Shown here piece by piece: positions 14,761 through 62,360 of a stretch of 64,000 nucleotides of DNA. The stretch comes from Clostridia bacterium. Lineage in GTDB: Bacteria; Bacillota; Clostridia; Christensenellales; Aristaeellaceae. Where the stretch lies: the NCBI GenBank assembly GCA_017545905.1, contig JAFWXL010000053.1, positions 25,309 through 89,308 on the forward strand. The letters are read 5' to 3'. Position numbers and translations under genes: made by a program. Under the pieces are notes generated by a model. It made no database searches. It was not told the DNA's origin and saw nothing but the letters and a program-made list of their open reading frames with translations. Each line of letters begins with the position of its first letter. Within the stretch, counting starts at the first letter, position 1.

Positions 14761-14798
14761 CCATCAGGCATTGCATCAATACCTGATGGTTTTTTTTG
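14761..14798 (+). terminator. Terminator after the MBL hydrolase gene; part of a repeated element
   Basis: The stem CCATCAGG/CCTGATGG (14761-14768 with 14782-14789) is followed by nine T. The A-rich left flank may also terminate minus-strand transcripts. A near copy occurs at 47077-47109, each copy next to a tRNA 3'-half remnant. The stretch 14637-14760 holds no gene that I can support. Confidence 0.8.
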
Positions 14799-33603: not shown

Positions 33604-33850
33604 CTCTAGGTCAGCCGCAGCGAAAAGCTACACAAACCCCGTCTCCAGAACATGCTGCGGATACACATCTGTAAACCACGTCCTCCGCGCTATATAGGAA
33701 GTCGCTCCGGCGGCTTTTTTTGTTTGTCTCATCAGCGCTGATTCTCCCCGAAATGATTGTGCTTTCGGTCGGGTTGCTATTCCCGCGGCACAGAGTGATG
33801 TATGTGTCACCGCAGGCGGGAAAAGCCGCCGTGCACAAGGAGAAAGCCTC

Positions 33851-34350: not shown

Positions 34351-34503
34351 CCCCGCAATGTGGCATGGAGGCAGACAACTCCCTCCAGCCGGGTTTCCTG
34401 ATTTTCCTTTTTCCCCGCCTGATGAGGACCCGGCGGCACCGGGTCGAAACGCAGCCTGCGTCGCGGGAAGCCGCACAGCTATCAAATCAAGGAGGCATTG
34501 CTC

Positions 34504-34722
34504 ATGGCAAAACTGGACCTTTACACCTGCATGGACATCTTCGACTGGTTCGATGACAACACATTCGAGTATATCAACCACATCCTCACCAGCAAGGCAA
34601 ACGGCGAGCAGCGCGTGCGTTCCGCCATGCCGGCTATCCTGCAGCATGCCCGCTGGCTCCTGAATCTGCACCTCGATACAGACTGCGCTTATCCGGAAGA
34701 AACCCTTCCCAAATCCGCTTGA
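34504..34722 (+). CDS. Small mobile-element protein, unknown
   Basis: This is 72 residues, acidic and probably helical, with a strong AAGGAGG site 8 nt before its ATG. It contains a LYTCMDIFDWFDDN motif. I do not recognise the family. It lies between the amidoligase remnant and the cyclotransferase gene on the same strand and is probably element cargo. Confidence 0.65.
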   Translation: MAKLDLYTCMDIFDWFDDNTFEYINHILTSKANGEQRVRSAMPAILQHARWLLNLHLDTDCAYPEETLPKSA

Positions 34723-34784
34723 CTTATCCGCCCGGCAGAGTGATGAATACGCACGACCAACCAACCCACAAGGAGGACACGAAT

Positions 34785-35237
34785 ATGAAATACATCGCTT
34801 ATGGCTCCAACATGGCACAGGATCAGATGGCACGCCGCTGCCCAGATGCCAGACTGATTAGCACAGGGTATCTTGAGCACACCAAGCTCGAATTCTACCT
34901 GCACGCGACGGTTGAGCGCTCACAGGCCAAGGACGCACGGGTGCCGGTGGCGGTCTGTGAGATCAGCAAAGCAGACGAGGAACGGCTGGACATCTACAAA
35001 GGCTTCCCCAGCTACTACATCAAGGCCCAGCGCAAGGTGCGGATGATGGACGGTTCTGAAATCCGCGGCATGATCTACCTGATGAACTACCTGCGCATGT
35101 CGCCGCCCGCCAGCGAATACTATGACGGCATTGAAACGGCATACATGAAGCTTGGCTTTAAGGAAGACATCGAGAAGGTACTCATGCCGGCGCTCGACCG
35201 CAGCTGGCAGCGCAAGAAGCAGATGAGCAAAAGGTGA
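34785..35237 (+). CDS. Gamma-glutamylcyclotransferase (AIG2-like) family protein
   Basis: This is 150 residues with the N-terminal YGSNM motif of the AIG2/GGCT fold and a DIYKGFPSYY segment with the expected acidic site region. GGCT-fold enzymes cyclise gamma-glutamyl groups to release 5-oxoproline. The family is known to be paired with amidoligase_2 genes on mobile elements, and the pairing is seen here, although the amidoligase is broken. AAGGAGG precedes the ATG at 34785. Confidence 0.85.
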   Translation: MKYIAYGSNMAQDQMARRCPDARLISTGYLEHTKLEFYLHATVERSQAKDARVPVAVCEISKADEERLDIYKGFPSYYIKAQRKVRMMDGSEIRGMIYLMNYLRMSPPASEYYDGIETAYMKLGFKEDIEKVLMPALDRSWQRKKQMSKR

Positions 35238-35433
35238 CCAAGCACCTGCAACGCTTGCCGCTCTCCAATCGAGGGCGGCCTTTTGCCGTCATACGAAAAA
35301 AGCAGCCTGTGCGGCTGCCGTTATGATGATTCGGTTACTGTTTTTGTAAGAGTGCTGCCCACGCTACGATGGCTATAAGTGATCATTTGCTGATGCGCTT
35401 TCAAATCAAGCAAAGCCTGCTTGGCATGATTGG

Positions 35434-35742
35434 TCATGGGGAATCCTTCTTGCTGGGCAGCGGCCTGCTGAGCATCTCATGCAGCACACGCCCGCCGTCC
35501 AGAAAGCCATGGATGTACATCTCGATCGCCAGCGCACCGCTTCGGGTAAAGTGTGCGTCTGCATACTCTTCGATCAGGTGCGCATGCTCTAGGCAAAGCT
35601 CTGCAAGCCTGTTTTCCAGTTCATCCGTCCGCTGCAAGCCTTCTATGAAAATGGGATAATCGGCCGGGTGGCGCTTCATGGCATTCGATTCTGTCCATCT
35701 GCCATGTAGCAACGTCGGTCGCGTACTGGTAAAGGACGTCAT
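35434..35742 (-). CDS. Small helical mobile-element protein (DUF6809-like)
   Basis: These are up to 102 codons. The region LAELCLEHAHLIEEYADAH followed by YIHGFLDGGRVLHEML resembles the C-terminal helices of DUF6809-type proteins common on Clostridial elements. The start is unclear. A well-placed ribosome site (GGGAGG) instead serves an ATG at about 35758 in another frame that reads MALDLKDDVLYQY, so the gene may contain a frameshift. Between 35238 and 35433 there is only the end of the element cargo. Confidence 0.45.
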   Translation of the reverse strand: MTSFTSTRPTLLHGRWTESNAMKRHPADYPIFIEGLQRTDELENRLAELCLEHAHLIEEYADAHFTRSGALAIEMYIHGFLDGGRVLHEMLSRPLPSKKDSP

Positions 35743-35750
35743 CTTTCAAA

Positions 35751-36545
35751 TCAAGCGCCATACATTTCACCTGCCTCCCTAAGATCCCTGCGCAATTGAG
35801 CGTACTTCGCTCTGTGCGCCTCTGCATCTATTGCTGACCGAAATGCGCAGTTGCCGCGCAGGTTAGACAGCAGGCATTTACGCAGCGCCTTATGCTCAGG
35901 ACCAGTCAGGCCAAGCCTGATCAGCCAGCCGTGCATGATGTATTTCTCGTTCTCCTACGGATGGTATGCCGGGAATACTCGCGTAGCTGCTTTGGCTGAC
36001 TGCACGACATGCTGGAGGAAAGTCTGCACAGCTTCCAAATCGGCGTGAGGATCAGCCTTGAATGTGATGCTGTCCCATGCGATGTCAATACCGTTAAGGT
36101 CACCAAAGTCTTTCAAATCCTGCATGGCCTGTACTGCCTCATCCATTGTGTCGGCGGGTGCGGTGCCTATTGCACTTTCGGGTATGTGCAGCGCGGACAT
36201 GCCGCAAGCCTTTCTGATCAGCCATTGTTTGCTGTACAGCATACTAAGCAGGTTCCGAAGATTCACCGGCGTGTATCCCTCCAGCGGAATCTGGATGCCT
36301 GATGCTGTGCTGTCCACCGGCTCTTGAATCTGCTTAGGCTGTGCGGCGACGATGCCCTGCATCTCCAGAAAAGGAAAGATCCCGTCCAGATCATCTCCGG
36401 ACAGGATCCCTTCACGCGACAGGTGGATGTCGCCGATCTGATATGCAAATGTGGGCGGGCCAAGGTAGACGGCGCGGGTATTTATGTACTGTGCCAGTGC
36501 GCCAGCCAGCTCCCGGCGGTTAATGATGTTCGTTTCAATCGTCAT
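35751..36545 (-). pseudogene. Mobile-element 'virulence-related' type protein interrupted by one in-frame TAG
   Basis: The first 196 codons (36545-35958) start after AAGGAGGG and contain MTIETNIINRR, an AVYLGPPTFAYQIG block and IQIPLEGYTPVNLRNL, the pattern of a protein often labelled virulence-related on Clostridial integrative elements. A TAG stands at 35955-35957. The frame then continues without a shift for 67 more codons (ENEKYIMHGWLIRLGL... LLSNLRGNCAF), which I recognise as the normal C-terminal part of this kind of protein. A CAG-to-TAG change would explain it. It is either a nonsense mutation or a suppressed or reassigned amber codon. Confidence 0.65.
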
Positions 36546-36682
36546 GATATGCCCTCCTTTCTTGGGTAGGACATTCATCACTCTGAACGGAGGAAAAGTC
36601 AAGTCAGATTTCAGCACTGATTCTGCATCCTAGACAGCACGGCTGAAATTCATGCACCAAAGATCGTATCAGACAAACTCCG

Positions 36683-47112: not shown

Positions 47113-47162
47113 TGGTGGCTCAAGACGGATTCGAACCATCGACCTGCCGGGTATGAACACCC
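47113..47162 (-). pseudogene. tRNA 3'-half remnant (copy 2, intact 3' half)
   Basis: On the minus strand the T-arm is complete (GATGG-TTCGAAT-CCGTC pairs fully), followed by the 7-nt acceptor strand TTGAGCC, discriminator A and encoded CCA. Upstream, a TTGGG/CCCGG stem around TTCATA resembles a Met-type anticodon arm with an 8-nt loop, but no D-arm or 5' acceptor strand (GGCTCAA) follows. Such 3' halves are what integration into a tRNA gene leaves behind. From 47163 to 47306 there is no gene. Confidence 0.6.
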
Positions 47163-47306: not shown

Positions 47307-50300
47307 TCATTTTGATCTTACGCGTGTTTTTTTGCGCACAAGCATCCATGCAACCGCCAACGACAGCATGGCAGTCAACAGCTTCAATGGTGTTTCATCT
47401 CCGGTATCCGGAATCACAACATTGGTGATCACGCCGCCGTCATAAGCACATTCGCCCGGCTCACCATGGTTGGTGTAAAAGGGAACATAGCCTGCCATGG
47501 GTTCTTCCACAACGCTGTACTTTGCCAGCTTACCGTCCACAGCAACGGGCAGGTTGTGGTAGTGATACCAACCTTCGCTGTCTGGCTTGGGCGTTTTGCG
47601 GTTCATGATCTCACCGTTGCAGTACAGCGTCAATTTGATCTCCGGCTTAGGGCCGTCGCCAAGGCCACGCCAGACCTTCTGAACACTGAAACTCCTGATT
47701 GCCTTGTTGATGATCGTGCCGCCATGATAGATCTCCGACGTCGCCTCTTTATACGGCTCGATGTTGTTGTAGATGGTCAGGTAGCCGTCCATATACGTTT
47801 CCTTCGCGGAATAGATGATCGGCAAACCGGATGCATCATAGAGCGGAAGGTTGGAATAGGCATAGACATTGCCGCTGCGCTCGCAGTTCGGCTGAGGATC
47901 CAGCTTTTCGCCGTTGGCATACAGCGTCAAAATGATACCGTCGCCCTCGTCGCCTCGCCAAACCTTCCTCACCTGGAACACCGTGGTGATCAGCCTATTG
48001 ACGATATCGACATGGTTTCCGCCCTGAACCACCTCGCCTTCCACACGATTCGAGTCAAGGCCATTCATCGTGATCCTGAATCGCGGATCCTCCGCCTCCT
48101 CAACTTCATAGTGCATGCCTGGGATCAGCCCATCGATGATCATGGTCTGGCCGTGTGCCAGCAGAACGGGCTCGCCGCTGATCAGTCTGCCAGAAACATC
48201 GCCGATGGTATACGGGAAGATCTTGTGAGAGACGCTTCCATCCGTATTGAAGACGTGCACCGTAATCGTGAATGTTTCCTCGGTCACACAGCCTTGAACC
48301 GTCTTGGTAATCGACAGCGTTTCCAGATAGAGGTTGTCAAAGGCGATGCTGTCCACCGCTTCGCCGTCAAGGGTGATCACGTGATACACATTCAGCGTGC
48401 CATCGCCCGCATCGCTCACGTCCACGGTAACCGTATACACGCTCGTGTCGAGAACAAAGATATCCTGCTCCACGTTCTTCTCACGTACGGTATAGACATG
48501 GCGACCCACGTCATTCAGCGTATAGCGCAGTTCCGGGAAGACGATCTCGCTCAATTCGTTGCAGACCGTCTTCGTCTCACCATTCTCATCACTCAGGATA
48601 AACTCAAACACCTGACCATGCGCAGGACTCTCGCCATTGACCGTCTTTCTGGCGGTCAGCGTCAGCGTACCGGCAGCTTCATAGGTATTCACGAAGTTCA
48701 GCTCCGTGCTGTTCTCACTCGGCGTCGCCTTCAGCGTGCCGTCGCCATTGTCGCTTACCTCAACTGTCACTGTGTATTCGCGATCGTCCACTGTGACGCC
48801 CGCACCGCTTTCGCTGCTTTCCTTCACGGTATAGGTATGGCTTCCAACATCCGACAGCGTATACGCAATACTCGGGTACTTGATCTTTCCCTGGGCATCG
48901 TTTTTCGCCTCGGCGATCAACTTATCGCCTTCGCTGATGGTAAAGGTGAATACATCCTTTGCCGTCAGTTCCCGGCCCGTCATGCGCTTCGTTCCTGCAA
49001 AGGTCACAGAGCCGCTCGCCGCGTAGGTGTTCACAAACGCTGCCTGATGCGCTTCGCCGCGCAGAATCGTGCCGCTTTCGCCGCTGAAGCTCTGCGTATA
49101 GCCGGGCTCCTGCTGCTCTGCGACACTGTACTTCACGCCGATGGGCAGGCCGATCAGCCGCGCCGTCTCACCATGCTTGAGGGTGAAAGTCAGCTCGCCG
49201 GCCGCATTTGCCGTGATGGTTTCCCTCTCTCCGGCCTTTTCAATCGTGAATGCTCCCGTCACGGGCGCTCCCACCTGGGTCAGCGCCACGGTGAATGTGA
49301 AGTCCTTGATCTGGCTTCCGTTCACCACGCTCTTGCTCACATCCAGCACGCCCAGCACCACATTGGTGATGGTTGTCTCGCTGCCCTCGGTTGCGCTGGC
49401 GCCGACATAGCCGACAACCGGAACCTCGCGCACGTCGTAGACATAGGGCACGCCATCTTCATCAAAGGCAAGAAGGTTTGCAAAGGTATGCTTCCATCCG
49501 CATCCCTCATTCAGCGTCACGGCATCAACCTTTTCAGCGTTGCGATACAATTCGGCAGTGATGCTGGCTGGGCGGATCCCCAGCTTGTTGTCCTCATCCT
49601 GCCAGACCTTTTCCACGCTGATGCTGGTCTTGTCGCTGTACGTGTTGTGGAACTGAATGGAGTCGTTCAGATCATCCGTCACCGTCAGCGTGCCGTCGCC
49701 GTTATCTGTGATGGTCAGTCTTACGGTGTACACCGTTTCGTCATAAGTGACGCCCGGGGCTCCGTCCTTCTTCTCCGAGATGGTGTACGTCTTCGTGCCC
49801 ACATCCGCCTCTGTGAACTGAAGCGCCGGGAAGGCAATCTTGCCCTGCGTATTGTTCACAGCAGTCATCAGCTGCTTGCCGTTTTCATCCGTCAGCACGA
49901 ACTCAAACTCGCCGTCGACAAGATCGCGGCCCGTCAGCACCTTGCTCGCCGACAGGGTATATTCTCCCTGCGCGCTGTAGGTGTTGGTGAACACAGCATT
50001 TGCGGTTTGGCCCATCACAATGTTGCCCGCTGCGCCGGATGCCGACTGGGTGAAGCCGGGCGCCTGTGCCTCCACAATACTGTAGTTTGCGCCGTGGGGC
50101 AGGCCGGAGACGATCACCGTTTCGCCATCCTCAAGGGTCAGCGAAGCGGATCCCGCCTCGTCAAGCGTCAGCATGCCCTCGCCCATAGAATATTCGCCGG
50201 TAATCGGCTTCCCACTGGCGTCGGTCATGGTCAGGGTGAACGCAAATTCCTTCTGCGCGTTTGTCGGAGCATTCAGCACCTCTTTGCTGATGCTCAGCTC

Positions 50301-53300
50301 ACCGGTCTTCACGCGATTGATGAAGGTTCTGAATTCCGCATTGCCGGTGGTTTCATCCTGCCTGCGATACGTTGCCGTGTCCAGCTCGCCCTTGCCTTCC
50401 TTATCCTCAGCGGTCACGGTGACGAAAACCTTCTCCTTGCTGCTTACGATGGTGGGATCGGTGGGATCGGTGCTCTCCGTCTCGGTGATGACATACATCC
50501 AGGTTCCTTCTTCACCGTACGTCGGCAGATCAAACAGGATGGTACCGTTCGCGTTATTGGTCACCGTAGAGATCCATTCGCCCCGCTTGTCCGCCGCGTT
50601 CTCATCATAGCGATGCAGATTAAAGGTGAACTCGCCCGCCTCCAGCTCGCGACCAATCAGCGCCTTTCTTGCCTGAAGGGAAATTCTGCCGCTGGCCGCG
50701 TACGTATTGGCAAACGCAACCGTATCCGTCACATTCGCCTGAATGGTTCCGGTATATACGTTTTCATCCAGCGTCCAGCCGGGATACGTGCCCGTCTCCT
50801 GCGCCTTATAGTGAACGCCGGCAGGAATGCCCGTCAGGGTCACGCTCTGGCAGCCCTGAAGGGACACATTGGCCTGTCCATTCGTCACGGTCAGCGTCTG
50901 CGTGCCCATGGTGAGCTCACCACTCCAGGGCCTGTACTTGCTGTCCGTAAAGGAAAGCGCCATCGTGAACGCCTGATTTTTTGCCGCTGCCGTTTCACCC
51001 GAGATGCTCTTGCTGATCTGCAGGCTGCCGGTCTTGGTGGTGTTGTTGAATACAGGCAGATCGACTTCTTGATCATTCTTTTTATAGGTCACTGACGTAT
51101 AATCGAAGGTTGTAGCGTTAGTCCCCACCAGTTGCACTTCTACATTATAGTGCGTGTCATCATAGTTGATATTCGGGTCCCGCTTTTCTTCGTCCACCAC
51201 CTCGATAATTGTGTAGTAATGCCTGGCTGGATTTAATGCCGTATATACAATGGGCTTAAAGCTGATCTCGGAGCCGATGCTGGTCACGGTCTGCAGCACC
51301 TCACTCCCTTTCTTAAGGACAAAGGTATACTCCTGATCCGGATCCGGCGCCTTACCATCCAGCAACTTTTGGGCTTTCAGGGTCACGCTCGCCTTTTGCA
51401 GCGAGTATTCATTGGTAAACACAGCCTCACTGGTCTCAAGCGGCACAATCTCTCCGGCATCGCCGCTGCTTTCAAGCAGCAGCCAGCCCTTGGGAACCAC
51501 TTCCGATACCTTATAGGTTGTGCCTGCGGGCAGGTTCTTCAGCAGAATGCTCTCGCCAGCCTCAAGGCTGACGGTAATGGTCCTTCCGTCCTCGGAGCGG
51601 GTCGGCTCCACCTTCTTCCACTGGGCCACAAGGGTTACGACCTGATCCTTCACATAGCCGCTGTTTGCAGGAATCGTGACCATGTCATCGATAACCGGAT
51701 AGGTTTTCGTGCCATCGGTGAAGCTGACCAGCTCATGGGCATAGCGGGTAAATTCCACCGGATTGAACGAATACGCGTCGCCGACCGTAACCTTCTTCGA
51801 GGGCATGGAACCGGCGCCTTCGTTTGCATCAAAATTCAGCGTATAGCTTACAGTCTCCCAGGTCCATGTGCCGGCATGGCCACCCTGCGTGAATACCTCT
51901 ACACCGGTCAAGGGGGAGGCGGCGTCATCATCTAACTTCACCCACTTGCCAGTATATCTGTTATTTATATTATTTATATTCGGATCCCTAGGCCATGCAT
52001 TGTTATGATCTTTGTTGAACTTCGTGGCATTTCCAATCGTAACCGTGCTCAGGTTCGGACAAGATGCAAAACAACTGGCTGAGCGCGCCATTTTGCTCGT
52101 ATCAAAGTTTCTGATATCCAATGTTGTCAGGCTGCTGCAATATGCAAACATGAACTGCATGTCTACTACGTTTACTGTGTTAAAACTGCTCAGATCAAGT
52201 GTCATCAAGCTTTCGCAGGCTTCAAACATCTCTGTCATGGTTTGGACATTCGTGGTGCTAAAGCTGCTCAGATCCAGCGACTTAAGGCTGGAACAACCCC
52301 TGAACATTTCTTGCATGTGACGGACATTCGTGGTTCTAAAGCTGCTCAGATCAAGCGATTCCAGCGCAGTACATGTCTTGAACATGCCAATCATGCTCGT
52401 AACATTACTGGTATTAAACGCTCTCAGATCCAGCGACTTAAGGCTGGAACAACCCCTGAACATTTCGAACATGCCAGTATCTGTTTCATTCACATCTCTG
52501 TATGTCACACTTTGGGTATTAAAGCCGGGCAGTTCCAGTTCCGTCAGGCTTTCGCAATACTTGAACATCCTATTCATGTCCGTGACATTCTGAGTATTGA
52601 ACGTGCGCACGTTCAGGCTCGTAAGTGCCTCGCACTCCGAGAACATTTTGCTCATGCCCGTGCCGCTGCTGGTATCAAAGGTTTTCAGATCCAGCGACGT
52701 CAGCGCAAAGCATTTCTCAAACATGCTGTTGAAGCCCCTCACATCGCTGGTGTCGAAGCTGCTCAGATCCAGCGACGTCAGCGTCTGGCAATTCGCAAAC
52801 ATGCTGCTCATGCCTATTGCCTTGCCAGTATCAAAGCTGCTCAGATTCAGCCACTCAAGACTAGTACAGCCGCTGAACATGCTGGAGAAATACTCAGACT
52901 GATGTGTATCGAATGTCTTCAGATCCAGCGATGTCAGGCTCGAGCAGCTGCCGAACATTTGACTCATATCTGTCATGGCGCTGGTGTCCAGCTTCGACAA
53001 GTCTATCGAGGCCAGATTTGTCATTCCATTGAAGAAGTATGCGCCAGACGCCGGTTTAATGTCGCCCTTCATCTCAACGGCAGTAACGCTGGCACAATCG
53101 TTATGCCAGGGTCTTAGTTGGTTGAGGTTAACGTTTTTAATCGTTTCATCAACCAGATAATAGATCCGATCATTAGCTTGAACCCGCTTGGCCTCTCCAA
53201 GATCAAATGTATTGCCATCGGGGTCTTTCGACTCACTGCTGCGGAAGAAGGTGAGCTTACCACCAACCAGCATGGCATATGCCTTTCCAGTCAGATCCTG

Positions 53301-56300
53301 AGCAGTATACCAGGAACTCCCGTCCACAACGGGCGCAGTCGTGGGGCTGGGCGACAGCTCCGGCTTGGGCGTGGGGGTGGGCGTCGGCTCCGGCGTCGTG
53401 GTGGGCGTCGGGGTGGGCACAGCGCTGATCGTTTCATATTCAAGCGTCTCCACCGCATGGCTCAGCTCGATATTGAAGGTAAACACCTCGCGGGAATTGC
53501 TGCTGCCCTTATTCTCCGGCACGATCTTCTCCACGCTCAGATTACCCGGTTTGACCGTGTTGCTGAACACAGGGGTCGTAGCAGAGCCGGTGATCGTCAG
53601 TTCGCCAAGCATCTCCTTTTCGCCGTAGCACGTAGGGCAGATATTCATGGAATTATTGACAATGCGCCAGAATGGTTCAGTGCTCACATCCGACTCCTGA
53701 ACGTGTACCCAATATCCATCGGATTGACTAGGATAACTCCAAAAACACTCCACATACTTATCGGTAACCATTTTATTATAGCCTTCCGCATAAAGAGAAC
53801 AGGCGGTTTCACCCAACTCCAGTCCGGTTCCCTTACAATGCGAACAATAACCTTCACCTGCCCATCGCGCTTGACATTCGTTGCACAGGAGAATCTTACT
53901 CTTCAAATTCTGAAAACTAGCATAACGTACAGGATTTGAACACTGACTTCCTATAATTCCTACTTCTGCCCCGTTAATTGTGGTAAGACTGCCACTGGAC
54001 CATTCAACAGAATATGCGGTAAAACCATTTCCAGCGCATCGAGTACAGAGCTTATATGCGCGCGTTGCCTTCTGTCCACTCTGCGTAAAGCTGAGGGTGC
54101 CATCGCCATTGTCAAACACTTTGATCGTGATCAGATATTCCTCGTTGGAATAATTGACGGTCGGGTCCGAGCCCTGCTTCTCGCGGATCACGTAAGTATA
54201 GCCCGCGGCATTCTGCTCATCCAAGGAAATGTGCTTCTGATTAAACTCGAGCGGCGGGAACACGATGTTGCCCTCGGCGTCGTTGGTCACCGTGGCGATC
54301 TTCGTGCCCAGCTTGTTCGCCTTTTTCTCATTATACTGGTACAGCTCGAAGGTGAATTCGCCTTCCTTCAGTGCGCGGCCCTCCAGCGCCTTCCATGCCC
54401 TGAGGGTCACGCTGCCGCTGGCCGTATATCGGTTTTCAAAGGTCAATCCCGGCTTATCTTCACCCTTCTCATTGAGGATGGTCGGGGTCACGGTCATGGT
54501 GCCGTCGCCGTTATCCGTCACAGATACGCTCACGTTGTATGTATGCGGATCTGCCTGATAGCCCGCCTTGCCGCCGTCCACCTCTTGGATGATATAATGG
54601 AAGGTCTGTCCATGATCCGCCTGCGTGTATTCCAGCTGGCCAAAGATCGCCTCCGCATTCGATACGATCTCCTCTGTGCCGCTGCCGCCGGTGGTGCCGG
54701 TCTCTTCATCCGGCGCACCCACGCGGGCGGTACGGATGACTTTACCATAGTCGGGGCTGCCCGGGTTATTATCCACCAGTTCAAAGCGGAACTGATTCTT
54801 GCGGATGGCCTGGCCGCGGAGCTCCTTGCTCACGGTAAGCTGTGCCGCGCCCGTTGCGGCATAGGTATTCACAAAGTCCGCATGGGCCGTCTGACCCGCG
54901 CGAATCACGCCCTCAGCGCCGGTGGCGGTGCTGGTGAAGCCGGGCGCCTCGGTCTCAATCACCTGATAGCCGCTCTCGGAGGGCAGATCGGAAACCACCA
55001 GCTTCTGCCTATGCCCAAGCTGCACGTCATCGCCGCTGGTTACCATGCCGCTGCTGACCTCAGTCCACTGGCCGCCGCTCTCCTGCATAATGACATAGGG
55101 ATAGCGCTCCAGCAGCGGCGCCGACGGGGCGTCCGGATCGGTCTGCTCCTCCAGCAGCACCAGCGTGAAGGTGAACGTCTGATCTTCACCCACATCCGTG
55201 GCATGTTCAACCGTTTTGGTCACCTCAAGAGAGCCCACGGGAATATAGGTGTTTGTCACCTGCGTATAGCCGTTGGCTTCGCCCATATACTTGGGCACAT
55301 ATTCCTCTTTAATGGTGTAGATATATTCCCTGCCGCCGTAGGCGTACTTATCCATCTGGCCGAAGTTATACGTCCAGTCGCCGTTCCTGTCGGGCATAAC
55401 CTCGCGTGCGGCAATCTTCTCGCCGTCGCGATAGAGCGTGATCACGACCATGCTCGGGCGCACACCCGCGGCATTCTCGTCGTCGTTCCACTGCTTCGTG
55501 CCGGAGATCTCCACCTGTTCATTGGGATGCACGTTCAGCAGGGTATAACTGTTCACGCCCTCATACTGAACCTTCGGGGTATAGCCGGCAACCGGCTCCT
55601 CCCTGAAGGAATACAGCCAGCGGACGCCATTCTCGTCCGTGGTATCCATCTGCATGAATTCCCAGCACCAGTTGTTGCTGTCATCCAGCGTCACGGTCAG
55701 CGGTTCCCCGTTCCTGATCACAGGCTCCGCGTCGCCAGCACTGCCCGCCAGGCGGCGCATCACGGTCACAGTCACGGAATCCGGGCGCATGCCGTCGTGG
55801 TTATTCTGATCCACCCAAGCCTTCTTCACAGCCAGGGTTTCCGGCATGATGCCCACGCGCGTGTACTCGTTGTGGATCAGCGCACTGGTCGTCCAGCTGA
55901 AGGTTTCCGTGACGCCGTCGGACGCAGTATATGCTTTGCCCGAGGTCAGCCTCACAGTCGCGTTGTTGTAGGCATACATGTTGTTGGCCGGATTCTTCGC
56001 CGCCTGCCAGTCAACCTGCGTCGGATCCTCGCTGCTGCGGGCATAGGCTCCCTTGGCGCTGAACTTCGTTTCGTCGCCGTGGTCATCCGGTGCGCGCATC
56101 TGCAGATAAGCCGACACGGATTCATCCGCACGCAGAATGAATGCCTGTCCTTCTGCCGTGCGGCTGGCGTCGATGGCAATCGCGGTCACGGACAGGGTTT
56201 CCGGCACGATCCACACGCCGGTTTCATCAAGCTCGACCTCTGTCCAGAGGCTGGCGTCCGTCAGGTCATAATTGCCGGTCATCTCCGGCGCAGCAGCTAT

Positions 56301-57527
56301 CTCGGCGCCGATGGCCACTTTTCTGCTCTGGCCGCCAAACTGCACGCCCGGCACCTGAGAATACAGCAGCCTGGGCGCTGCGCCCAGCGCGACAAATTCG
56401 CTCAGATCCACCTGCAGCAGCGTGCCGCGCCACTGGCCCTTGCCCTGCCAGTCGCCGTTCCATTCCTTGCGTGCCTCAACATGGTCTTTATCTTGCAGCT
56501 GGCTTTCGGTTGCGCTTTCGCCGCTGCCTGGCACATAGTTTTCAAGTCCGTCGTAGATCACGATATCCTTGGAAGCGGTATCGAGCTGGTTATCAACCTG
56601 CAGACGGTAGGTATAGGTATTGCCCTCGTACACCGACACCTGCTCCTGATCGCCAATGCCCTGCGTCCAGATATTCACCAGATCATCCCTGACCTCTTTG
56701 GAGAAGCTGGAAACGGAAGCTGTCAGCGCGGACACAACATTGGTGCACTTTCCGTATACAAAGCGATTCTCATCCGTATTGGGATCAAGGTTGGTCAGCG
56801 CGCTGACGATATCCGCCGGCATGTCGGGCGTCTGCGTGTTGTTGCCGCTGGCCGGAGTATCCGGACAGCCCAGCTGATTTTTGATGGTGCCCAGCGTGCC
56901 GTCCGGCAGATTCTCCACCGCGGATTCAAACACGACATAGTTCGTCAGTTCCGAGCCATATTCTTCCAGATCATCCCAGGTGTATGCCGCTTCAAAGTTA
57001 AGCGTCGGCTGATCTGCATATCCGCGGCTGTTGAAGATATACTGCGGGGAGAGTTCCGCCTCCACGACGAGCAGAATGCGCCCCGTGTTGCGGTAGTTAT
57101 TCACGGTGTATACATTGGTGATGGTGTCGCCGGGGCGCAGCGCAATGGTATCCAGCAGCGGCGTCACGCGCGGCGGCAGCAGATCATACCAGACGCCGCT
57201 GGTCTGCGCGGGGATGATCCCTGCACGCACGGCATCCATGTATTCGATGTGATCCCTCAGGTTGCTCTGCGCGCTCATGATCGCCTGATAAGGGATCTTT
57301 AGGCGCGCATTTTCATTATCTGTTTTGATATCACCATGAATACGCTTATGCAGCGAAACGCCATAGTTCGCCGCCTCATAGGTGGCCAGGGAGTAATTGA
57401 ACCCTTCAAACACCGAAGTCTGCGTCGAGATATTCGTGTTATGATCCACCCAGCCATAAGCATGCATAGCGACGTCGTTTTTGAATTTGGTGGTCGGGCT
57501 CTCGCTGCGCGCAAGCATTTCCTCCAC
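47307..57527 (-). CDS. Giant surface protein, main part: Cna-B and Spy0128/FctA-like isopeptide domains, BspA-type repeats, IPDTG anchor
   Basis: These 3406 codons continue, in the same frame and one codon after a TAG, the secreted protein encoded at 57531-59507. There is no usable ribosome site of its own. In order: Cna-B-like domains, several pilin-type isopeptide domains, a cysteine-rich insert (about residues 1160-1306), a Thr-Pro linker, about 13 BspA-type leucine-rich repeats (about 1495-1840), an InlB B-repeat-like segment (about 1890-1970), then many more pilin and Cna-B domains. The C-terminus is a sorting signal: IPDTG, a hydrophobic stretch and RKK. Cross-linked domains make long stiff stalks on the cell wall. 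No sortase gene is in the window. Confidence 0.85.
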   Translation of the reverse strand: MEEMLARSESPTTKFKNDVAMHAYGWVDHNTNISTQTSVFEGFNYSLATYEAANYGVSLHKRIHGDIKTDNENARLKIPYQAIMSAQSNLRDHIEYMDAVRAGIIPAQTSGVWYDLLPPRVTPLLDTIALRPGDTITNVYTVNNYRNTGRILLVVEAELSPQYIFNSRGYADQPTLNFEAAYTWDDLEEYGSELTNYVVFESAVENLPDGTLGTIKNQLGCPDTPASGNNTQTPDMPADIVSALTNLDPNTDENRFVYGKCTNVVSALTASVSSFSKEVRDDLVNIWTQGIGDQEQVSVYEGNTYTYRLQVDNQLDTASKDIVIYDGLENYVPGSGESATESQLQDKDHVEARKEWNGDWQGKGQWRGTLLQVDLSEFVALGAAPRLLYSQVPGVQFGGQSRKVAIGAEIAAAPEMTGNYDLTDASLWTEVELDETGVWIVPETLSVTAIAIDASRTAEGQAFILRADESVSAYLQMRAPDDHGDETKFSAKGAYARSSEDPTQVDWQAAKNPANNMYAYNNATVRLTSGKAYTASDGVTETFSWTTSALIHNEYTRVGIMPETLAVKKAWVDQNNHDGMRPDSVTVTVMRRLAGSAGDAEPVIRNGEPLTVTLDDSNNWCWEFMQMDTTDENGVRWLYSFREEPVAGYTPKVQYEGVNSYTLLNVHPNEQVEISGTKQWNDDENAAGVRPSMVVITLYRDGEKIAAREVMPDRNGDWTYNFGQMDKYAYGGREYIYTIKEEYVPKYMGEANGYTQVTNTYIPVGSLEVTKTVEHATDVGEDQTFTFTLVLLEEQTDPDAPSAPLLERYPYVIMQESGGQWTEVSSGMVTSGDDVQLGHRQKLVVSDLPSESGYQVIETEAPGFTSTATGAEGVIRAGQTAHADFVNTYAATGAAQLTVSKELRGQAIRKNQFRFELVDNNPGSPDYGKVIRTARVGAPDEETGTTGGSGTEEIVSNAEAIFGQLEYTQADHGQTFHYIIQEVDGGKAGYQADPHTYNVSVSVTDNGDGTMTVTPTILNEKGEDKPGLTFENRYTASGSVTLRAWKALEGRALKEGEFTFELYQYNEKKANKLGTKIATVTNDAEGNIVFPPLEFNQKHISLDEQNAAGYTYVIREKQGSDPTVNYSNEEYLITIKVFDNGDGTLSFTQSGQKATRAYKLCTRCAGNGFTAYSVEWSSGSLTTINGAEVGIIGSQCSNPVRYASFQNLKSKILLCNECQARWAGEGYCSHCKGTGLELGETACSLYAEGYNKMVTDKYVECFWSYPSQSDGYWVHVQESDVSTEPFWRIVNNSMNICPTCYGEKEMLGELTITGSATTPVFSNTVKPGNLSVEKIVPENKGSSNSREVFTFNIELSHAVETLEYETISAVPTPTPTTTPEPTPTPTPKPELSPSPTTAPVVDGSSWYTAQDLTGKAYAMLVGGKLTFFRSSESKDPDGNTFDLGEAKRVQANDRIYYLVDETIKNVNLNQLRPWHNDCASVTAVEMKGDIKPASGAYFFNGMTNLASIDLSKLDTSAMTDMSQMFGSCSSLTSLDLKTFDTHQSEYFSSMFSGCTSLEWLNLSSFDTGKAIGMSSMFANCQTLTSLDLSSFDTSDVRGFNSMFEKCFALTSLDLKTFDTSSGTGMSKMFSECEALTSLNVRTFNTQNVTDMNRMFKYCESLTELELPGFNTQSVTYRDVNETDTGMFEMFRGCSSLKSLDLRAFNTSNVTSMIGMFKTCTALESLDLSSFRTTNVRHMQEMFRGCSSLKSLDLSSFSTTNVQTMTEMFEACESLMTLDLSSFNTVNVVDMQFMFAYCSSLTTLDIRNFDTSKMARSASCFASCPNLSTVTIGNATKFNKDHNNAWPRDPNINNINNRYTGKWVKLDDDAASPLTGVEVFTQGGHAGTWTWETVSYTLNFDANEGAGSMPSKKVTVGDAYSFNPVEFTRYAHELVSFTDGTKTYPVIDDMVTIPANSGYVKDQVVTLVAQWKKVEPTRSEDGRTITVSLEAGESILLKNLPAGTTYKVSEVVPKGWLLLESSGDAGEIVPLETSEAVFTNEYSLQKASVTLKAQKLLDGKAPDPDQEYTFVLKKGSEVLQTVTSIGSEISFKPIVYTALNPARHYYTIIEVVDEEKRDPNINYDDTHYNVEVQLVGTNATTFDYTSVTYKKNDQEVDLPVFNNTTKTGSLQISKSISGETAAAKNQAFTMALSFTDSKYRPWSGELTMGTQTLTVTNGQANVSLQGCQSVTLTGIPAGVHYKAQETGTYPGWTLDENVYTGTIQANVTDTVAFANTYAASGRISLQARKALIGRELEAGEFTFNLHRYDENAADKRGEWISTVTNNANGTILFDLPTYGEEGTWMYVITETESTDPTDPTIVSSKEKVFVTVTAEDKEGKGELDTATYRRQDETTGNAEFRTFINRVKTGELSISKEVLNAPTNAQKEFAFTLTMTDASGKPITGEYSMGEGMLTLDEAGSASLTLEDGETVIVSGLPHGANYSIVEAQAPGFTQSASGAAGNIVMGQTANAVFTNTYSAQGEYTLSASKVLTGRDLVDGEFEFVLTDENGKQLMTAVNNTQGKIAFPALQFTEADVGTKTYTISEKKDGAPGVTYDETVYTVRLTITDNGDGTLTVTDDLNDSIQFHNTYSDKTSISVEKVWQDEDNKLGIRPASITAELYRNAEKVDAVTLNEGCGWKHTFANLLAFDEDGVPYVYDVREVPVVGYVGASATEGSETTITNVVLGVLDVSKSVVNGSQIKDFTFTVALTQVGAPVTGAFTIEKAGERETITANAAGELTFTLKHGETARLIGLPIGVKYSVAEQQEPGYTQSFSGESGTILRGEAHQAAFVNTYAASGSVTFAGTKRMTGRELTAKDVFTFTISEGDKLIAEAKNDAQGKIKYPSIAYTLSDVGSHTYTVKESSESGAGVTVDDREYTVTVEVSDNGDGTLKATPSENSTELNFVNTYEAAGTLTLTARKTVNGESPAHGQVFEFILSDENGETKTVCNELSEIVFPELRYTLNDVGRHVYTVREKNVEQDIFVLDTSVYTVTVDVSDAGDGTLNVYHVITLDGEAVDSIAFDNLYLETLSITKTVQGCVTEETFTITVHVFNTDGSVSHKIFPYTIGDVSGRLISGEPVLLAHGQTMIIDGLIPGMHYEVEEAEDPRFRITMNGLDSNRVEGEVVQGGNHVDIVNRLITTVFQVRKVWRGDEGDGIILTLYANGEKLDPQPNCERSGNVYAYSNLPLYDASGLPIIYSAKETYMDGYLTIYNNIEPYKEATSEIYHGGTIINKAIRSFSVQKVWRGLGDGPKPEIKLTLYCNGEIMNRKTPKPDSEGWYHYHNLPVAVDGKLAKYSVVEEPMAGYVPFYTNHGEPGECAYDGGVITNVVIPDTGDETPLKLLTAMLSLAVAWMLVRKKTRVRSK
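52010..53040 (-). repeat. BspA-type leucine-rich repeat array inside the giant surface protein
   Basis: About 13 tandem units of roughly 75 bp encode the pattern MF..C.SL.SLDLSSF.T..V..M. The DNA units are similar enough (for example the two GGCTGGAACAACCCCTGAAC stretches near 52290 and 52443) to allow recombination. One unit (about 52470-52500) carries an insertion. The family is common in surface proteins of gut and oral bacteria and is linked to binding of host or bacterial surfaces. Confidence 0.85.
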
Positions 57528-57530
57528 GAT

Positions 57531-59507
57531 CTAGCGCACGCGGTCAGATGCCTTCATGATGATCGTCGGATATACGCGCCACTCGATCATGGCGGTATCA
57601 CAGTGCTCCGCCATCTTTCCATCAAAGACGTTGCTGGTAAAGGTATGGCGCACGTCCGTCACGTTCTGCGGGAAGAACACCGTCATCGCGCCGGTGGTGA
57701 TGTTCTGCGCCACATCCACAAACCTGAATTCGCCCAGGCCATCTGCGCCCCAGGTCGCCCTAGCGGCCTTACGCCATTCGCTCTCGCCCTTCACCTTATA
57801 CTCGATGATCAGATCCGGCGTGGGCAGCGTATTATCCGTTACGTAGGCAAACGTGCCATCGCTCCACTTGGCATAGCGCTGCTTGGTCGGCACAGAGATG
57901 CGCAGGCTTCTGAATTCAAAATCCTCGCTGGTCAGTTCCTGCTCCTCAAAGTTGAAGAAGGTCCTGAAATCCTCCGTAACTTGCGTCCAGCCCAGCTTGC
58001 CGAAGTCGCTGGCATCAAGGCCCAGGCTCTCCAGATCCGCATTGATGGCGGCGTCATTCAGCTGCTCGTAGGAAAAGCCCTTCGTTTTCTCTGTCGTCCA
58101 CGGATAACCATAGCCCGTAGATTCCACGATGAAATCCATCTCTACGTCTTGACCGTTTTCCAGCAGATTCAGCGCATAGCCATACGTCCAATCTTTCCGG
58201 TTGACGGCATGCGTCCATTTGCTCACCTCGAACGCACCGACCGGCCTGACCCACGCAATCGGCGAATAGATAATCTCCGCGCTGTCCTTCCAGCTCGTGA
58301 CCACCCGATCATCCCCGTCGACAGCCTTGTCAGACTCCGTCAGGATCCATTTCACGTTGTTATTAAGTCTGTATTCCTTCTGCTCCTGTATGGGCGCAGC
58401 AACTTCAAAAGCGTCCTTTCGATACGCAGACCACAGCTCCAGCATCTGGTTATACTGATATCCATACGACGTGGACTTCGTGTGATCCACAACATTGATG
58501 GTATAGCTTCCGTCCGTCTCAGCAACAAAATCATAATCATCGCTGCCCAGGAAAATGCCCTTCGTGGCAAACGTCAGTTCTTCGTTCTCGCCAACCAGAT
58601 AGGCGTCGCTCAGCACATCCTGAATCTTCAGGGAATACGGCTGATTGTTCGATTTGGAGGGATAGGTGTACCAGCGGACATAGATATAGTCATCCGGATC
58701 TTTGTTCTCTTCAGGAAGTCTGGCAATCAGCTTTTCGCTCAGGCCGGGATTCATTTCAAACAAATCGCCGCCCTTATGCGCGCTCAGAATCTCCGCCTTG
58801 GTATCCACCTGGGCGGTCAGCACATTGCTGGTCATCGGGATTGTATTGCCCTGATGGGTGGTCACCTCGACGTCCACCGTAATGGGAAGGCTTTCGCTCA
58901 TATCCACAATGTCGATGGGCCTGATTCCGCGGATGGCCACCTCGATAGACACGCTGGTCGCTGCACTGAGGGTACGGGTATTGGTCAGCACATAGTTATC
59001 GCCGACAAGCTGCCAGTTGAAATCCGCCTTCGTTGACGGCGCAGCCGGATATGGGATTTCCATATAGCCCAGCAGATTGGCATCATCCGGCACGCCCGCC
59101 CTTTCGCTGCCTGTGCCCTCATATGTACGGGCACGCCACACCTTTGCAGGGATGGTAATCGTAATATCTCCGGGCGCATAGTTATACTGGCCCGACATCG
59201 ACGTTTCGATCCTGTATATCATCGGCAGCTCTGCGTTGTCCGTTGCAGACAGATACAAATGCTCAGCCGTCGTCTCCGGTGCGTCAGCGCCCGCAGCCGT
59301 CTTTGTACTGTCGTGCGTGATCCACTGCACTGTGAGCGCTTCGATGGTCGTTCCATCCAGGCTGTTGCCGATGTTCTCGTCGCTCTCGGCAAACGCCATA
59401 CCCCATGATGCAAATCCCGCTGTGTTCAGACAAAGCAACATGGCAGCCATGCACAGCCACTTTGTCAGCCCGATTCCCATCTTGTTCAGCATTTTCGTTT
59501 TCAGCAC
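57531..59507 (-). CDS. Giant surface protein, N-terminal part with signal peptide (ends at in-frame TAG)
   Basis: These are 658 codons starting at GTG (59505-59507) with AGGGGA 8 nt upstream. A signal peptide (hydrophobic stretch about residues 14-40, cleavage near FAES) is followed by beta-rich adhesin-type domains. The frame ends at TAG (57531-57533), and the same frame continues from the next codon for 3406 more codons to the wall anchor. Read as one gene the product would be about 4067 residues. As it stands, this part would be secreted without any anchor. A premature stop, a programmed read-through and an amber-suppressing code are all possible. Confidence 0.8.
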   Translation of the reverse strand: MLKTKMLNKMGIGLTKWLCMAAMLLCLNTAGFASWGMAFAESDENIGNSLDGTTIEALTVQWITHDSTKTAAGADAPETTAEHLYLSATDNAELPMIYRIETSMSGQYNYAPGDITITIPAKVWRARTYEGTGSERAGVPDDANLLGYMEIPYPAAPSTKADFNWQLVGDNYVLTNTRTLSAATSVSIEVAIRGIRPIDIVDMSESLPITVDVEVTTHQGNTIPMTSNVLTAQVDTKAEILSAHKGGDLFEMNPGLSEKLIARLPEENKDPDDYIYVRWYTYPSKSNNQPYSLKIQDVLSDAYLVGENEELTFATKGIFLGSDDYDFVAETDGSYTINVVDHTKSTSYGYQYNQMLELWSAYRKDAFEVAAPIQEQKEYRLNNNVKWILTESDKAVDGDDRVVTSWKDSAEIIYSPIAWVRPVGAFEVSKWTHAVNRKDWTYGYALNLLENGQDVEMDFIVESTGYGYPWTTEKTKGFSYEQLNDAAINADLESLGLDASDFGKLGWTQVTEDFRTFFNFEEQELTSEDFEFRSLRISVPTKQRYAKWSDGTFAYVTDNTLPTPDLIIEYKVKGESEWRKAARATWGADGLGEFRFVDVAQNITTGAMTVFFPQNVTDVRHTFTSNVFDGKMAEHCDTAMIEWRVYPTIIMKASDRVR

Positions 59508-59929: not shown

Positions 59930-59933
59930 ATGA
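59682..59933 (+). CDS. Possible small protein coupled to the next gene
   Basis: This 83-codon open frame has a TGA stop overlapping the ATG of the next gene (ATGA), the arrangement of translationally coupled genes. It lacks a clear ribosome site and I do not recognise the sequence (it contains TQFEFLLLYNEED). It could be a real small partner, the tail of a lost gene, or chance. Confidence 0.3.
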   Translation: MSTFMLYHPCPESTSYLSDDPTTQFEFLLLYNEEDLSSDNMETCHFLCKVYATQKKSSILKIDYNEHPRQRSFSDVSERKEII

Positions 59934-61033
59934 ATATAGACAACCTCCAAGTGCTGTTCGAAAACTACATGGCGAACTTTGATCTAATCAACAGCCCTAA
60001 GCATAATGAGAATTACAAATGGGAAGCCATTGAACAAGTTCAAAGAGAATGGGATATCGATGCAGAGAACATCTCAGAGATGATCAAGCGAGCTTTCTGC
60101 AAATCCTTTAATCTGATCAATAATCGCATTGTTCAGCCTGTTTCGGGTATCGTTGCCCTGGCAAAGGTCGAACCTGAAACAATAAGAGCCGCCTTCAAAG
60201 AATTGCTGAAAGAGGATTGTGGCGATATTGATGCAAGGCAGGGACGTATACTCAGTTTCCTGGATACTTGCAACGCTCTGCTGGAAAAGCACTATCCCGG
60301 AAAATGGAAATACGTGCAGGATATGCGTTCTGTAATTGACTATCTCGCGATGATCAAGCCTGCTGAAAACTATTTGTTTAAAGCGATGACGGCTCATTAT
60401 TTTGCGAAATACATGGAATATGGCAACGATATCGGAGCAGGCCAAACCTTTAAGCTCAGGAACTATTATGAGATGTGCGATCAGCTTGTTCAGCAGATTG
60501 CGAATCATTCGGGGCTGCTCAAGATTGATGATGGCAGAACTCCGAAGTGGAAAGATCCCAGCCATCATGTATTGGCGTATGATCTGATTTACTGCCTGGG
60601 TGTATATGGCTTCACGAATGGCATGAAGATGCCTGTATCAAAAAAGAAGCATTCTCCAGCCAAGCAAAGCGCTTGCCGAGAAGAAATGACGCAGGCGCTT
60701 CAGCAGGAAATAGACGTCCTTCAGGATCAGATCGATGCGCTGGTCACTTCGCTGAGTGGTATGCTGAAATGGGATTTCACTGGCCAAACATTGAAGACAA
60801 AGGCATTTGGAGTCGTGGATATCCATCGGCAAGAAGGCAGATATGTGTATTTCACTGTCCAGGGAGCGGAGAAGAAATTCTCGATACCAGACAGTATTGC
60901 TGGAGGCTTTCTGATTCCGGAGGATACAGAGATCATAAAATCCTGTAAGCAGGAAATGGATTTGCTCAAGCAGATCGATGCTCTTGAAAAGAAGCAGAAA
61001 ATCAAGTATATGGAGATCCGACATTATCAATAA
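59930..61033 (+). CDS. Conserved-looking hypothetical protein upstream of the macro-NADAR gene
   Basis: This is 367 residues, mostly helical by appearance, with AAAGGAA before the ATG. I do not recognise the family. Notable segments are YKWEAIEQVQREWDID near the N-terminus, LINNRIVQPVSGI, a central DARQGRILSFLD and PGKWKYVQDMRSVIDYL, then a lysine-rich linker, a coiled-coil stretch (about 245-275) and a second charged helix at the C-terminus. No membrane segment or signal peptide is present. It lies 46 nt before the macro-NADAR gene on the same strand and probably works with it. Whether it is an ADP-ribosylating enzyme, a target or a sensor cannot be told from the sequence. Confidence 0.75.
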   Translation: MNIDNLQVLFENYMANFDLINSPKHNENYKWEAIEQVQREWDIDAENISEMIKRAFCKSFNLINNRIVQPVSGIVALAKVEPETIRAAFKELLKEDCGDIDARQGRILSFLDTCNALLEKHYPGKWKYVQDMRSVIDYLAMIKPAENYLFKAMTAHYFAKYMEYGNDIGAGQTFKLRNYYEMCDQLVQQIANHSGLLKIDDGRTPKWKDPSHHVLAYDLIYCLGVYGFTNGMKMPVSKKKHSPAKQSACREEMTQALQQEIDVLQDQIDALVTSLSGMLKWDFTGQTLKTKAFGVVDIHRQEGRYVYFTVQGAEKKFSIPDSIAGGFLIPEDTEIIKSCKQEMDLLKQIDALEKKQKIKYMEIRHYQ

Positions 61034-61079
61034 ATTCTTGCTCGTACATCTGATCCGACAAACGTAAGGAGAGTTTGAT

Positions 61080-62360
61080 ATGCCAGGGAACCTTCTAATC
61101 AGCAAAACGGATATCACCAGACTTGAAGTTGACTGCATTGTCAATGCTGCCAATTCACAGTTGAAGCATGGCGGTGGTGTATGCGGTGCAATTTTCCGGG
61201 CAGCAGGTGCGCATGAACTTCAAGCTGCATGTGATGTTTACGGCAGCTGCCTCACGGGTCAAGCTGTCATGACGCCTGGATTTAACTTGAAAGCGAAATA
61301 TATCATCCACGCGGTTGGCCCCGTATGGAATAGCGGAAATCAGGGAGAAGAAGCCCTGCTTAAAAGCTGCTATCAGGCATCGCTGCGTCTTGCTATGAAG
61401 CACGGCTGTAAGACGATGGCTTTTCCGCTGATTTCTTCAGGCATCTATGGCTATCCGAAGGACAAGGCTTGGAAAGCTGCGCTTACAGCAATTCGCGATT
61501 TCCAGAAAGAGAATGCTGCCTATCCAATAGACGTCACGATGGCTGTACTGGATGAAGAGGTTTATCAAATGGGTTTGTCTTTGGTGAATAAAGAGAAATC
61601 CGATGAAAGCTTTGTCTTTTTCTGGCATGAGTATGAAGCTCATGGCTGCTTCAGCCAATGGTATCCGGCTTCGTTTGTTGTTGAGGGCATCCGTTATTGT
61701 CATGCCGAGCAGTATATGATGGCAAAAAAAGCGCTGCTATTTGGTGATTTGGAATACTATGTGCGCATCATGCATGAGACTGATCCCAAAGCATGTAAAG
61801 CTTTAGGGAAAAAGGTGCGCGGTTTTGAGGCAGATGTGTGGGATGCATGCTGTGAGGAGATCGTATATCACGCCAATCTGGCAAAATTCCAGCAGAATCC
61901 ATCGCTGAGAAAAGAACTTCTGAATACCGGTGATGCTCTGTTAGCTGAAGCCAGCCCGTTGGATAAGATATGGGGTATTGGTATTGCAGCGGATCATCCC
62001 GATAGCCAGTTTCCTGATCGCTGGAAAGGAAAGAATCTGCTGGGCAAAGCACTTACGAATGTAAGGAAGCAGCTTGTTGCCGAGCAGAAAAAAGGGCGAT
62101 TTACAAACCCATGGCTATATACGGATGCCGGACGTGAAGAAAGGCTCAGACTGGGGTGCATGAGAGCTGAGGGGATTGCGCTGCATATGCTGAAAAAGCA
62201 AAAATGGTCGGATTTGAATGCTGAAGAAACTGCGCGAGCAGAACAGATCACGTGTGAAGTGCTCAGCGAAATGAATTTCTGTAAATCAGCGGATGGTGGA
62301 TACATCGATTTTGAACAGATGGATCTTGAGCGCGGAATTGTGATTAACTACGATGATTGA
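61080..62360 (+). CDS. Macro domain-NADAR domain fusion protein
   Basis: This is 426 residues with AAGGAG upstream of the ATG. Residues about 1-170 form a macro domain: IVNAANSQLKHGGGVCGAI binds ADP-ribose, and FPLISSGIYGYP is the second loop. Residues about 178-345 form a NADAR (YbiA-like) domain: FFWHEYEAHGCFSQW, CHAEQYMMAKKAL and WKGKNLLGKAL. A further ~80-residue tail follows. Macro domains bind or remove ADP-ribose, and NADAR domains act on N-glycosidic bonds and have been linked to removal of ADP-ribose from guanine in DarT-type systems. The fusion therefore probably handles ADP-ribosylated nucleic acid or NAD metabolites. It is followed by a strong terminator. Confidence 0.9.
   Translation: MPGNLLISKTDITRLEVDCIVNAANSQLKHGGGVCGAIFRAAGAHELQAACDVYGSCLTGQAVMTPGFNLKAKYIIHAVGPVWNSGNQGEEALLKSCYQASLRLAMKHGCKTMAFPLISSGIYGYPKDKAWKAALTAIRDFQKENAAYPIDVTMAVLDEEVYQMGLSLVNKEKSDESFVFFWHEYEAHGCFSQWYPASFVVEGIRYCHAEQYMMAKKALLFGDLEYYVRIMHETDPKACKALGKKVRGFEADVWDACCEEIVYHANLAKFQQNPSLRKELLNTGDALLAEASPLDKIWGIGIAADHPDSQFPDRWKGKNLLGKALTNVRKQLVAEQKKGRFTNPWLYTDAGREERLRLGCMRAEGIALHMLKKQKWSDLNAEETARAEQITCEVLSEMNFCKSADGGYIDFEQMDLERGIVINYDD

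What the first reader, a model, noticed from the sequence alone, without database searches (positions are those of the whole stretch)
57525..57536. A roughly 12-kb surface-protein gene is split only by one in-frame TAG
The frame with signal peptide (57531-59507) ends at TAG, and exactly the same frame resumes at the next codon and stays open for 3406 codons to a wall-anchor signal. The downstream part has no signal peptide and no properly spaced ribosome site, and the upstream part has no anchor, so only the joined product of about 4067 residues makes biological sense. More than 10 kb stays open after the stop, so either the mutation is very recent, or the stop is read through or switched (phase variation), or TAG is a sense codon here.
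Basis: partly seen in the sequence, partly recalled or inferred. Interest (0 to 1): 0.75.

Follow-up and report, generated by a model that had tools for sequence, protein, structure and literature searches.

The report
Giant surface-protein gene, one premature stop
A very long cell-surface protein gene in a draft gut-type Clostridia genome is cut by a single early stop codon, most likely a recent inactivating mutation or possibly an assembly error, rather than a new way of reading the genetic code.

Summary
In detail: on the minus strand a 658-codon frame with a signal peptide ends at TAG (57533-57531), and the same frame stays open for 3407 more codons to a wall-anchor signal. The joined frame is the right gene model. 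Of 40 matches to an intact relative's fragment in 308 genomes of the family, 31 span the TAG column. Only our gene has a stop; the other 30 do not.

TAG is not a sense codon here. Release factor 1 is present, no PylS or CUA tRNA was found in an assembly 78% complete, and TAG ends 6 of 337 other predicted genes in a 436-kb sample. No repeat, second copy or conserved stop supports switching or readthrough, and RNA folds are near-ordinary.

The best explanation is a recent nonsense allele, fixed or polymorphic, in a patchily distributed giant adhesin-like gene. A consensus error cannot be excluded without reads. It is an ordinary event in an unusually long gene. Two side facts are mildly interesting: this genome strongly avoids CTAG and rarely uses TAG as a stop, and the gene has an excess of CTAG.

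The parts
57534..59507 (-). upstream piece, 658 codons from GTG: signal peptide plus N-terminal region with no Pfam or NCBIfam hit
   Evidence: matched at 27-50% identity by 10 of 10 homologous frames compared (4 of them paralogues from one genome)
57531..57533 (-). in-frame TAG (inside a CTAG tetranucleotide)
   Evidence: the only stop among 31 junction-spanning matches
47307..57530 (-). downstream piece, 3407 codons plus TGA: FctA, DUF7601 and Cna_B domains and a PARCEL/DUF285 leucine-rich repeat block
47307..47414 (-). C-terminal IPDTGD sorting-signal-like motif, hydrophobic stretch and basic tail
   Evidence: read by eye; same layout by eye in the 5 of 7 longer relative frames that are complete; a sortase gene is in the genome
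57516..57527 (-). possible but poor restart site after the TAG: GTG at 57527, and GGAGG two bases before ATG 57518-57516
   Evidence: read by eye

Best explanation
This is an allele of a single-copy giant gene for a sortase-anchored surface protein, in a draft genome that looks like a gut Clostridia metagenome bin. It carries one recent nonsense substitution, either fixed in the strain or polymorphic in the sampled population. Translation would end at TAG by RF1 and give a secreted, unanchored fragment of 658 residues. The stalk and the C-terminal anchor would not be made beyond background readthrough, so the giant protein is effectively off. Shown: one gene split by one stop, intact relatives, and TAG acting as an ordinary stop in this genome. 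Inferred: that the base is real, that it is recent, and that no full product is made.
For: Intact relatives: 40 matches in 27 of 308 family genomes (own included); 31 span the TAG column and only this genome has a stop there. In 22 of 23 relative frames with both flanks aligned, exactly one residue stands between the flanks (29 loci given, some of them the same gene twice). Of 7 longer relative frames, the 5 complete ones run from leader to anchor in one frame of 3509-4161 codons and 2 run open to a contig end. TAG is a normal stop: RF1 at 509 bits; TAG ends 6 of 337 other predicted genes, 3 of 291 if only well-scoring genes count, among them a LacI-family gene whose domain matches span 7-340 of its 344 residues and a YabP gene followed in frame by a separate YqfD gene. 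TAG is what a random nonsense change would mostly give: 730 of the 1282 single substitutions that make a stop in this gene make TAG, against 6 of 337 native stops. The gene is patchy and probably dispensable: 3 of 29 same-genus genomes, 27 of 308 in the family. Belinky et al. 2021 (PMC7918605; [quoted passage not shown]
Against: No reads or second assembly were available, so the base itself is unverified. The frame downstream shows no further lesion. That is expected if the stop is recent, but equally if it is an error or if the full protein is still made. About 0.85% neutral divergence would be needed before three further nonsense changes were expected, so the openness only bounds the age. 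Belinky et al. also argue that many in-frame stops are not pseudogenes, that readthrough may be frequent, and that such stops may lower expression (abstract); this leans towards the readthrough rival.
Confidence: 0.74

Rival explanations
1. Consensus or assembly artefact: the draft genome mixes strains or holds a wrong base, and the organism's gene is intact.
For: The genome is a draft of 115 contigs, 77.8% complete, 3.1% contaminated. The TAG sits in a CTAG, a tetranucleotide nearly absent from this genome (o/e 0.03 in the 436-kb sample).
Against: No other predicted gene in the sample showed strong coding signal on both sides of a TAG. Of 33 other in-frame neighbours after any stop, the 5 checked with Pfam look like separate genes; 28 were not checked that way. 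Five other CTAGs in the same gene cause no stop.
Confidence: 0.17
2. Regulated readthrough or a reversible on/off stop that sets how much giant protein is displayed.
For: The downstream frame is fully open. The position tolerates many residues in relatives (8 kinds in 19 distinct rows). The first 50 nt from the TAG fold somewhat better than shuffles (z -1.6; 9 of 200 shuffles as good). Belinky et al. suggest readthrough of in-frame stops may be frequent (PMC7918605 abstract).
Against: 0 of the 30 other spanning matches have a stop there. The 100-nt downstream and junction folds are ordinary (z 0.57 and -0.27). No inverted repeat, notable tract or second copy was found. No CUA tRNA was found.
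Confidence: 0.06
3. Two separate proteins: a secreted fragment, and a downstream product restarted at GTG 57527 or ATG 57518.
For: Start codons and a GGAGG lie within 15 bases after the TAG.
Against: The spacing is poor, and the downstream product would carry a wall anchor but no signal peptide (by eye). Relatives encode one chain.
Confidence: 0.02
4. TAG is a sense codon in this organism (pyrrolysine or other reassignment).
For: TAG is very rare as a terminator here: 6 of 337 other genes, against 554 of 4058 stop triplets in intergenic DNA, both strands.
Against: RF1 is present. The only PylS-model match is 21.4 bits, under the 178-bit cut-off. No CUA tRNA was found. With TAG read as sense, 17 of 330 predicted genes (121,587 codons) had an internal TAG and only this one had strong coding on both sides. 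TAG ends complete genes.
Confidence: 0.01

Closest known systems
Sortase-anchored giant surface proteins with Cna_B/FctA isopeptide domains (Gram-positive adhesins and pilin-like stalks; the general description is recalled)
   Same: Signal peptide, repeated FctA/Cna_B/DUF7601 domains, IPDTGD-type anchor; a sortase gene in the genome
   Different: The N-terminal 658 residues match no Pfam or NCBIfam family and only a chance-level PDB sequence, and in this copy leader and anchor are separated by a stop
Natural premature-stop alleles of Listeria inlA (PMC5131979, abstract and outline seen; that InlA is LPXTG-anchored is recalled)
   Same: A premature stop in a surface-protein gene that is intact in other isolates
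   Different: There many isolates show the polymorphism; here only one draft-genome copy is known
In-frame stop codons in bacterial coding genes surveyed by Belinky et al. 2021 (PMC7918605, abstract and parts read)
   Same: An isolated in-frame stop with an open, conserved frame behind it
   Different: The large-scale survey focused on stops shared by two or more species; this one is seen in one genome

Membership tests
Sortase-anchored isopeptide-domain surface protein | isopeptide-forming Cna_B/FctA domains | tested here: met
   FctA 2.1e-98 (7 stretches), Cna_B 2.9e-71 (5 stretches); isopeptide residues not checked
Sortase-anchored isopeptide-domain surface protein | signal peptide and C-terminal sorting signal on one chain | tested here: not met
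   seen by eye on separate sides of the TAG; on one chain in the 5 relative frames that are complete. The gene belongs to the family by homology; the product expected from this copy does not
Sortase-anchored isopeptide-domain surface protein | sortase in the genome | tested here: met
   one PF04203 match, 42.3 bits, over cut-off
Recently inactivated gene (nonsense allele) | single inactivating lesion, relatives intact | tested here: met
   1 of 31 junction-spanning matches has a stop, the own copy; no further stop in 3407 codons
Recently inactivated gene (nonsense allele) | stop present in the reads / in the strain | not testable with these tools
Programmed readthrough gene | stop conserved at the same place among relatives | tested here: not met
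   0 of 30 others
Programmed readthrough gene | stimulating structure after the stop | tested here: inconclusive
   z 0.57 (100 nt), -1.60 (50 nt), -0.27 (junction)
Phase-variable gene | repeat tract, inverted repeat or donor copy at the site | tested here: not met
   only the self-match for 401 bases; two short imperfect direct repeats and no inverted repeats within 300 bases on each side
Pyrrolysine TAG decoding | PylS and tRNA-CUA | tested here: not met
   assembly 78% complete
Genome-wide TAG reassignment | RF1 lost and in-frame TAG in many genes | tested here: not met

The most novel reading that the evidence does not exclude
In a genome that rarely uses TAG as a stop and strongly avoids CTAG, a CTAG-borne amber codon in a giant adhesin acts as a low-level readthrough valve: a secreted 658-residue fragment is the main product and a small share of chains becomes the full anchored fibre.
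Probability: 0.05. Interest if true: 0.55.

Novelty: new member of a known kind. Interest (0 to 1): 0.18.

Why it matters
It is a clean example of how a giant gut-bacterial surface protein could be switched off by one codon, and of why in-frame stops in draft genomes should be checked against reads before recoding is invoked. The TAG/CTAG avoidance in this lineage would make further amber stops easy to spot.

Tried and rejected
Pyrrolysine or code change: rejected. The tRNA-CUA-like pattern gave 1 match, and it lies in a tRNA-Arg (anticodon TCT) gene. Three tRNA matches at contig ends were not called by ARAGORN and were read by eye: L049 has a GGT anticodon, and the second tRNAs in L041 and L042 have CTC.

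Switching by recombination or a mutagenic retroelement: the 401 bases around the TAG have no second copy in this genome, and nothing notable was found around the site. No search for reverse transcriptases was made.

A widespread-error genome: 34 of the 338 predicted genes in the sample have an in-frame open extension of at least 60 codons with coding score over 20, the window gene among them. Of the other 33, 5 pairs were checked with Pfam. Four carry different families on the two sides (YabP/YqfD; histidinol dehydrogenase/aminotransferase and TelA/Abi_2; transporter component/melibiase). In the fifth the downstream side is a complete alanine racemase and the upstream side has no hit. The other 28 were only looked at in the listing.

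A second assembly: the genome collection gave 5 loci, each 42-50% identical in its best segment, and the viral collection gave none. Both answers warn that records of this genome or very near ones may be left out, so this is weak evidence of absence.

PDB sequences for the N-terminal piece: only one chance-level match, E 0.79.

Paper searches, listings only unless stated: readthrough plus adhesin gave one unrelated review; CTAG avoidance gave 5 papers, none opened; inlA stops gave 17, of which one was opened; readthrough and pseudogenes gave 11, of which one was opened; rumen adhesin-like proteins gave 10, mostly on archaea, none opened; premature stops in metagenome-assembled genomes gave one, not opened. 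No claim of absence in print is made. No structure was predicted.

Full report
Observation. On the minus strand a frame opens at GTG 59507, runs 658 codons and ends at TAG 57533-57531. The next codon continues the same frame to TGA at 47309-47307, 3407 codons later. The whole frame is 4066 codon positions, the TAG included. The upstream piece begins with a signal peptide; the downstream piece ends with IPDTGD, a hydrophobic stretch and a basic tail (by eye). Pfam finds FctA (7 stretches), DUF7601 (6), Cna_B (5) and DUF285/LRR repeats in the downstream piece and nothing in the upstream piece. NCBIfam adds PARCEL repeats (11 stretches) and the streptococcal pilin isopeptide domain (7). By architecture this is the gene of a giant, isopeptide-stiffened, wall-anchored, adhesin-like surface protein (inference).

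Where it is. The window is the last 64,000 bases of an 89,308-base contig of a draft genome: 2.53 Mb, 115 contigs, 77.8% complete, 3.1% contaminated. Its relatives by this gene are Clostridia metagenome-assembled genomes, among them water-buffalo cecum and water-deer rectum bins (record titles). That the window comes from a gut metagenome bin is inferred from this.

The gene model. Homologues of the upstream piece occur in 4 of 100 genomes searched, own genome included, and in 3 of 29 genomes of the genus. Of 7 longer relative frames read, 5 are complete single frames of 3509 to 4161 codons with an anchor, and 2 run open to a contig end. A 505-residue fragment of one intact relative, spanning the junction, was searched against 308 genomes of the family: 27 genomes, 40 matches. 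In a few genomes (such as G041 and G163) only 4 of the 5-6 candidates were scored. By their query ranges, 31 of the 40 span the TAG column (query position 104); the other 9 start beyond it. Of the 31, one is the query itself, 29 are other loci and one is our gene; only our gene has a stop. Of 29 relative loci given to a script, some of them the same gene fetched twice, 23 frames had both flanks aligned. In 22 of these exactly one residue stands between the flanks; in the 23rd there are 11. The column is variable: 8 residue kinds in 19 distinct rows. So the TAG replaces one tolerant codon in one long gene; it does not mark a natural gene boundary.

Is TAG a stop here? Yes. prfA is present at 509 bits, over its cut-off. 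The only match to the PylS model is 21.4 bits against a cut-off of 178. Of 44 tRNA matches, none carries a CUA anticodon: most were called by ARAGORN, and three cut off at contig ends were read by eye as GGT, CTC and CTC. A CUA-type pattern found only tRNA-Arg TCT. In 436 kb of this genome (window plus 19 stretches, about 17% of the assembly) a simple codon-usage gene finder called 338 genes: TGA 184, TAA 147, TAG 7 including this one. With a coding score over 30 it is TGA 158, TAA 130, TAG 4 including this one. TAG-ended genes include a LacI regulator with domain matches spanning 7-340 of its 344 residues, and a YabP gene followed in frame by a separate YqfD gene. When TAG was treated as sense, 17 of 330 predicted genes had an internal TAG, and only this gene had strong coding signal on both sides (197.6 and 866.8; the next best, 16.8 and 28.2, is the YabP/YqfD pair). 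The missing 22% of the genome is the caveat. Related genomes use TAG somewhat more: 20 of 239 genes in seven small samples, from 0 of 33 to 4 of 22.

Why TAG. Among the 1282 single substitutions that would create a stop in this gene, 730 give TAG, whereas only 6 of 337 other genes end in TAG. A random nonsense change therefore fits better than a natural terminator. The TAG sits in CTAG, which is depleted to 0.03 of expectation in this genome sample and to 0.00-0.13 in seven related samples of 20-80 kb. The gene itself holds 6 of the 44 CTAGs in the sample. About 1.1 would be expected at the rate of the rest (Poisson P about 0.001), and seven relatives' genes hold 0 or 1. The gene also has lower G+C (0.549, against 0.579 in the sample). 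Its best match is L078, from another genus of the family (G277), ahead of the two same-genus copies. With the patchy distribution, this is consistent with a recently acquired accessory gene in which a nonsense change would be tolerated. That part is inference; no tree was built.

Switching and readthrough. The 401 bases around the TAG have no second copy in the genome, and repeats near the site are short and ordinary. RNA folding after the stop is unremarkable at 100 nt (z 0.57) and across the junction (z -0.27), and somewhat stable at 50 nt (z -1.60, 9 of 200 shuffles as good). No other spanning match has a stop there. Little supports a regulated stop, though a small readthrough level cannot be excluded.

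Conclusion. The best-supported mechanism is a recent nonsense allele that ends translation after a 658-residue secreted fragment and abolishes the anchored giant protein. The FctA search shows no second giant gene in this assembly: of 7 matches, 6 lie in this gene and one in a 219-residue frame. The main rival is a wrong or mixed consensus base. Belinky et al. (PMC7918605; abstract, section 2.1 and part 1 of 2 of the Discussion read) describe in-frame stops as widespread and mostly short-lived; they also argue that many are not pseudogenes and that readthrough may be frequent, which keeps the readthrough rival alive. Premature stops in a surface-protein gene are known from inlA (PMC5131979, abstract and outline). 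The finding is real as sequence but ordinary as biology.

Noticed in passing
whole genome sample (window plus L058-L076): TAG is a very rare terminator (6 of 337 genes other than the one in question) although TAG makes up 554 of 4058 stop triplets in intergenic DNA; CTAG is depleted to 0.03 of expectation, and also in 7 related genomes sampled (0.00-0.13). The cause is unknown.
   Followed up: partly
47307-59507: The giant gene holds 6 CTAGs (7 relatives' genes hold 0-1 each), suggesting foreign origin or relaxed avoidance.
   Followed up: partly
14797-14821 and 47113-47137 (minus strand): Two tRNA-like 3' halves ending in ACCA, same orientation, 32.3 kb apart, the only two found in this genome assembly with up to 3 mismatches; ARAGORN and Rfam call nothing there. 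Both are followed by a CCATCAGGTATTG stretch; at 47113 this stretch starts an inverted repeat with a T run (seen by eye).
   Followed up: partly
32700-36650: Low-coding stretch with 5 CTAGs and a D5_N fragment, looks like a mobile-element remnant.
   Followed up: no
59930-62360 (plus strand): A 367-residue frame without Pfam or NCBIfam hit beside a Macro plus NADAR domain gene, in a low-G+C stretch.
   Followed up: no
L033, L035, L036, L037: A relative in another genus of the family (G041) carries four paralogues of this giant gene, each in an open frame of over 4100 codons.
   Followed up: no
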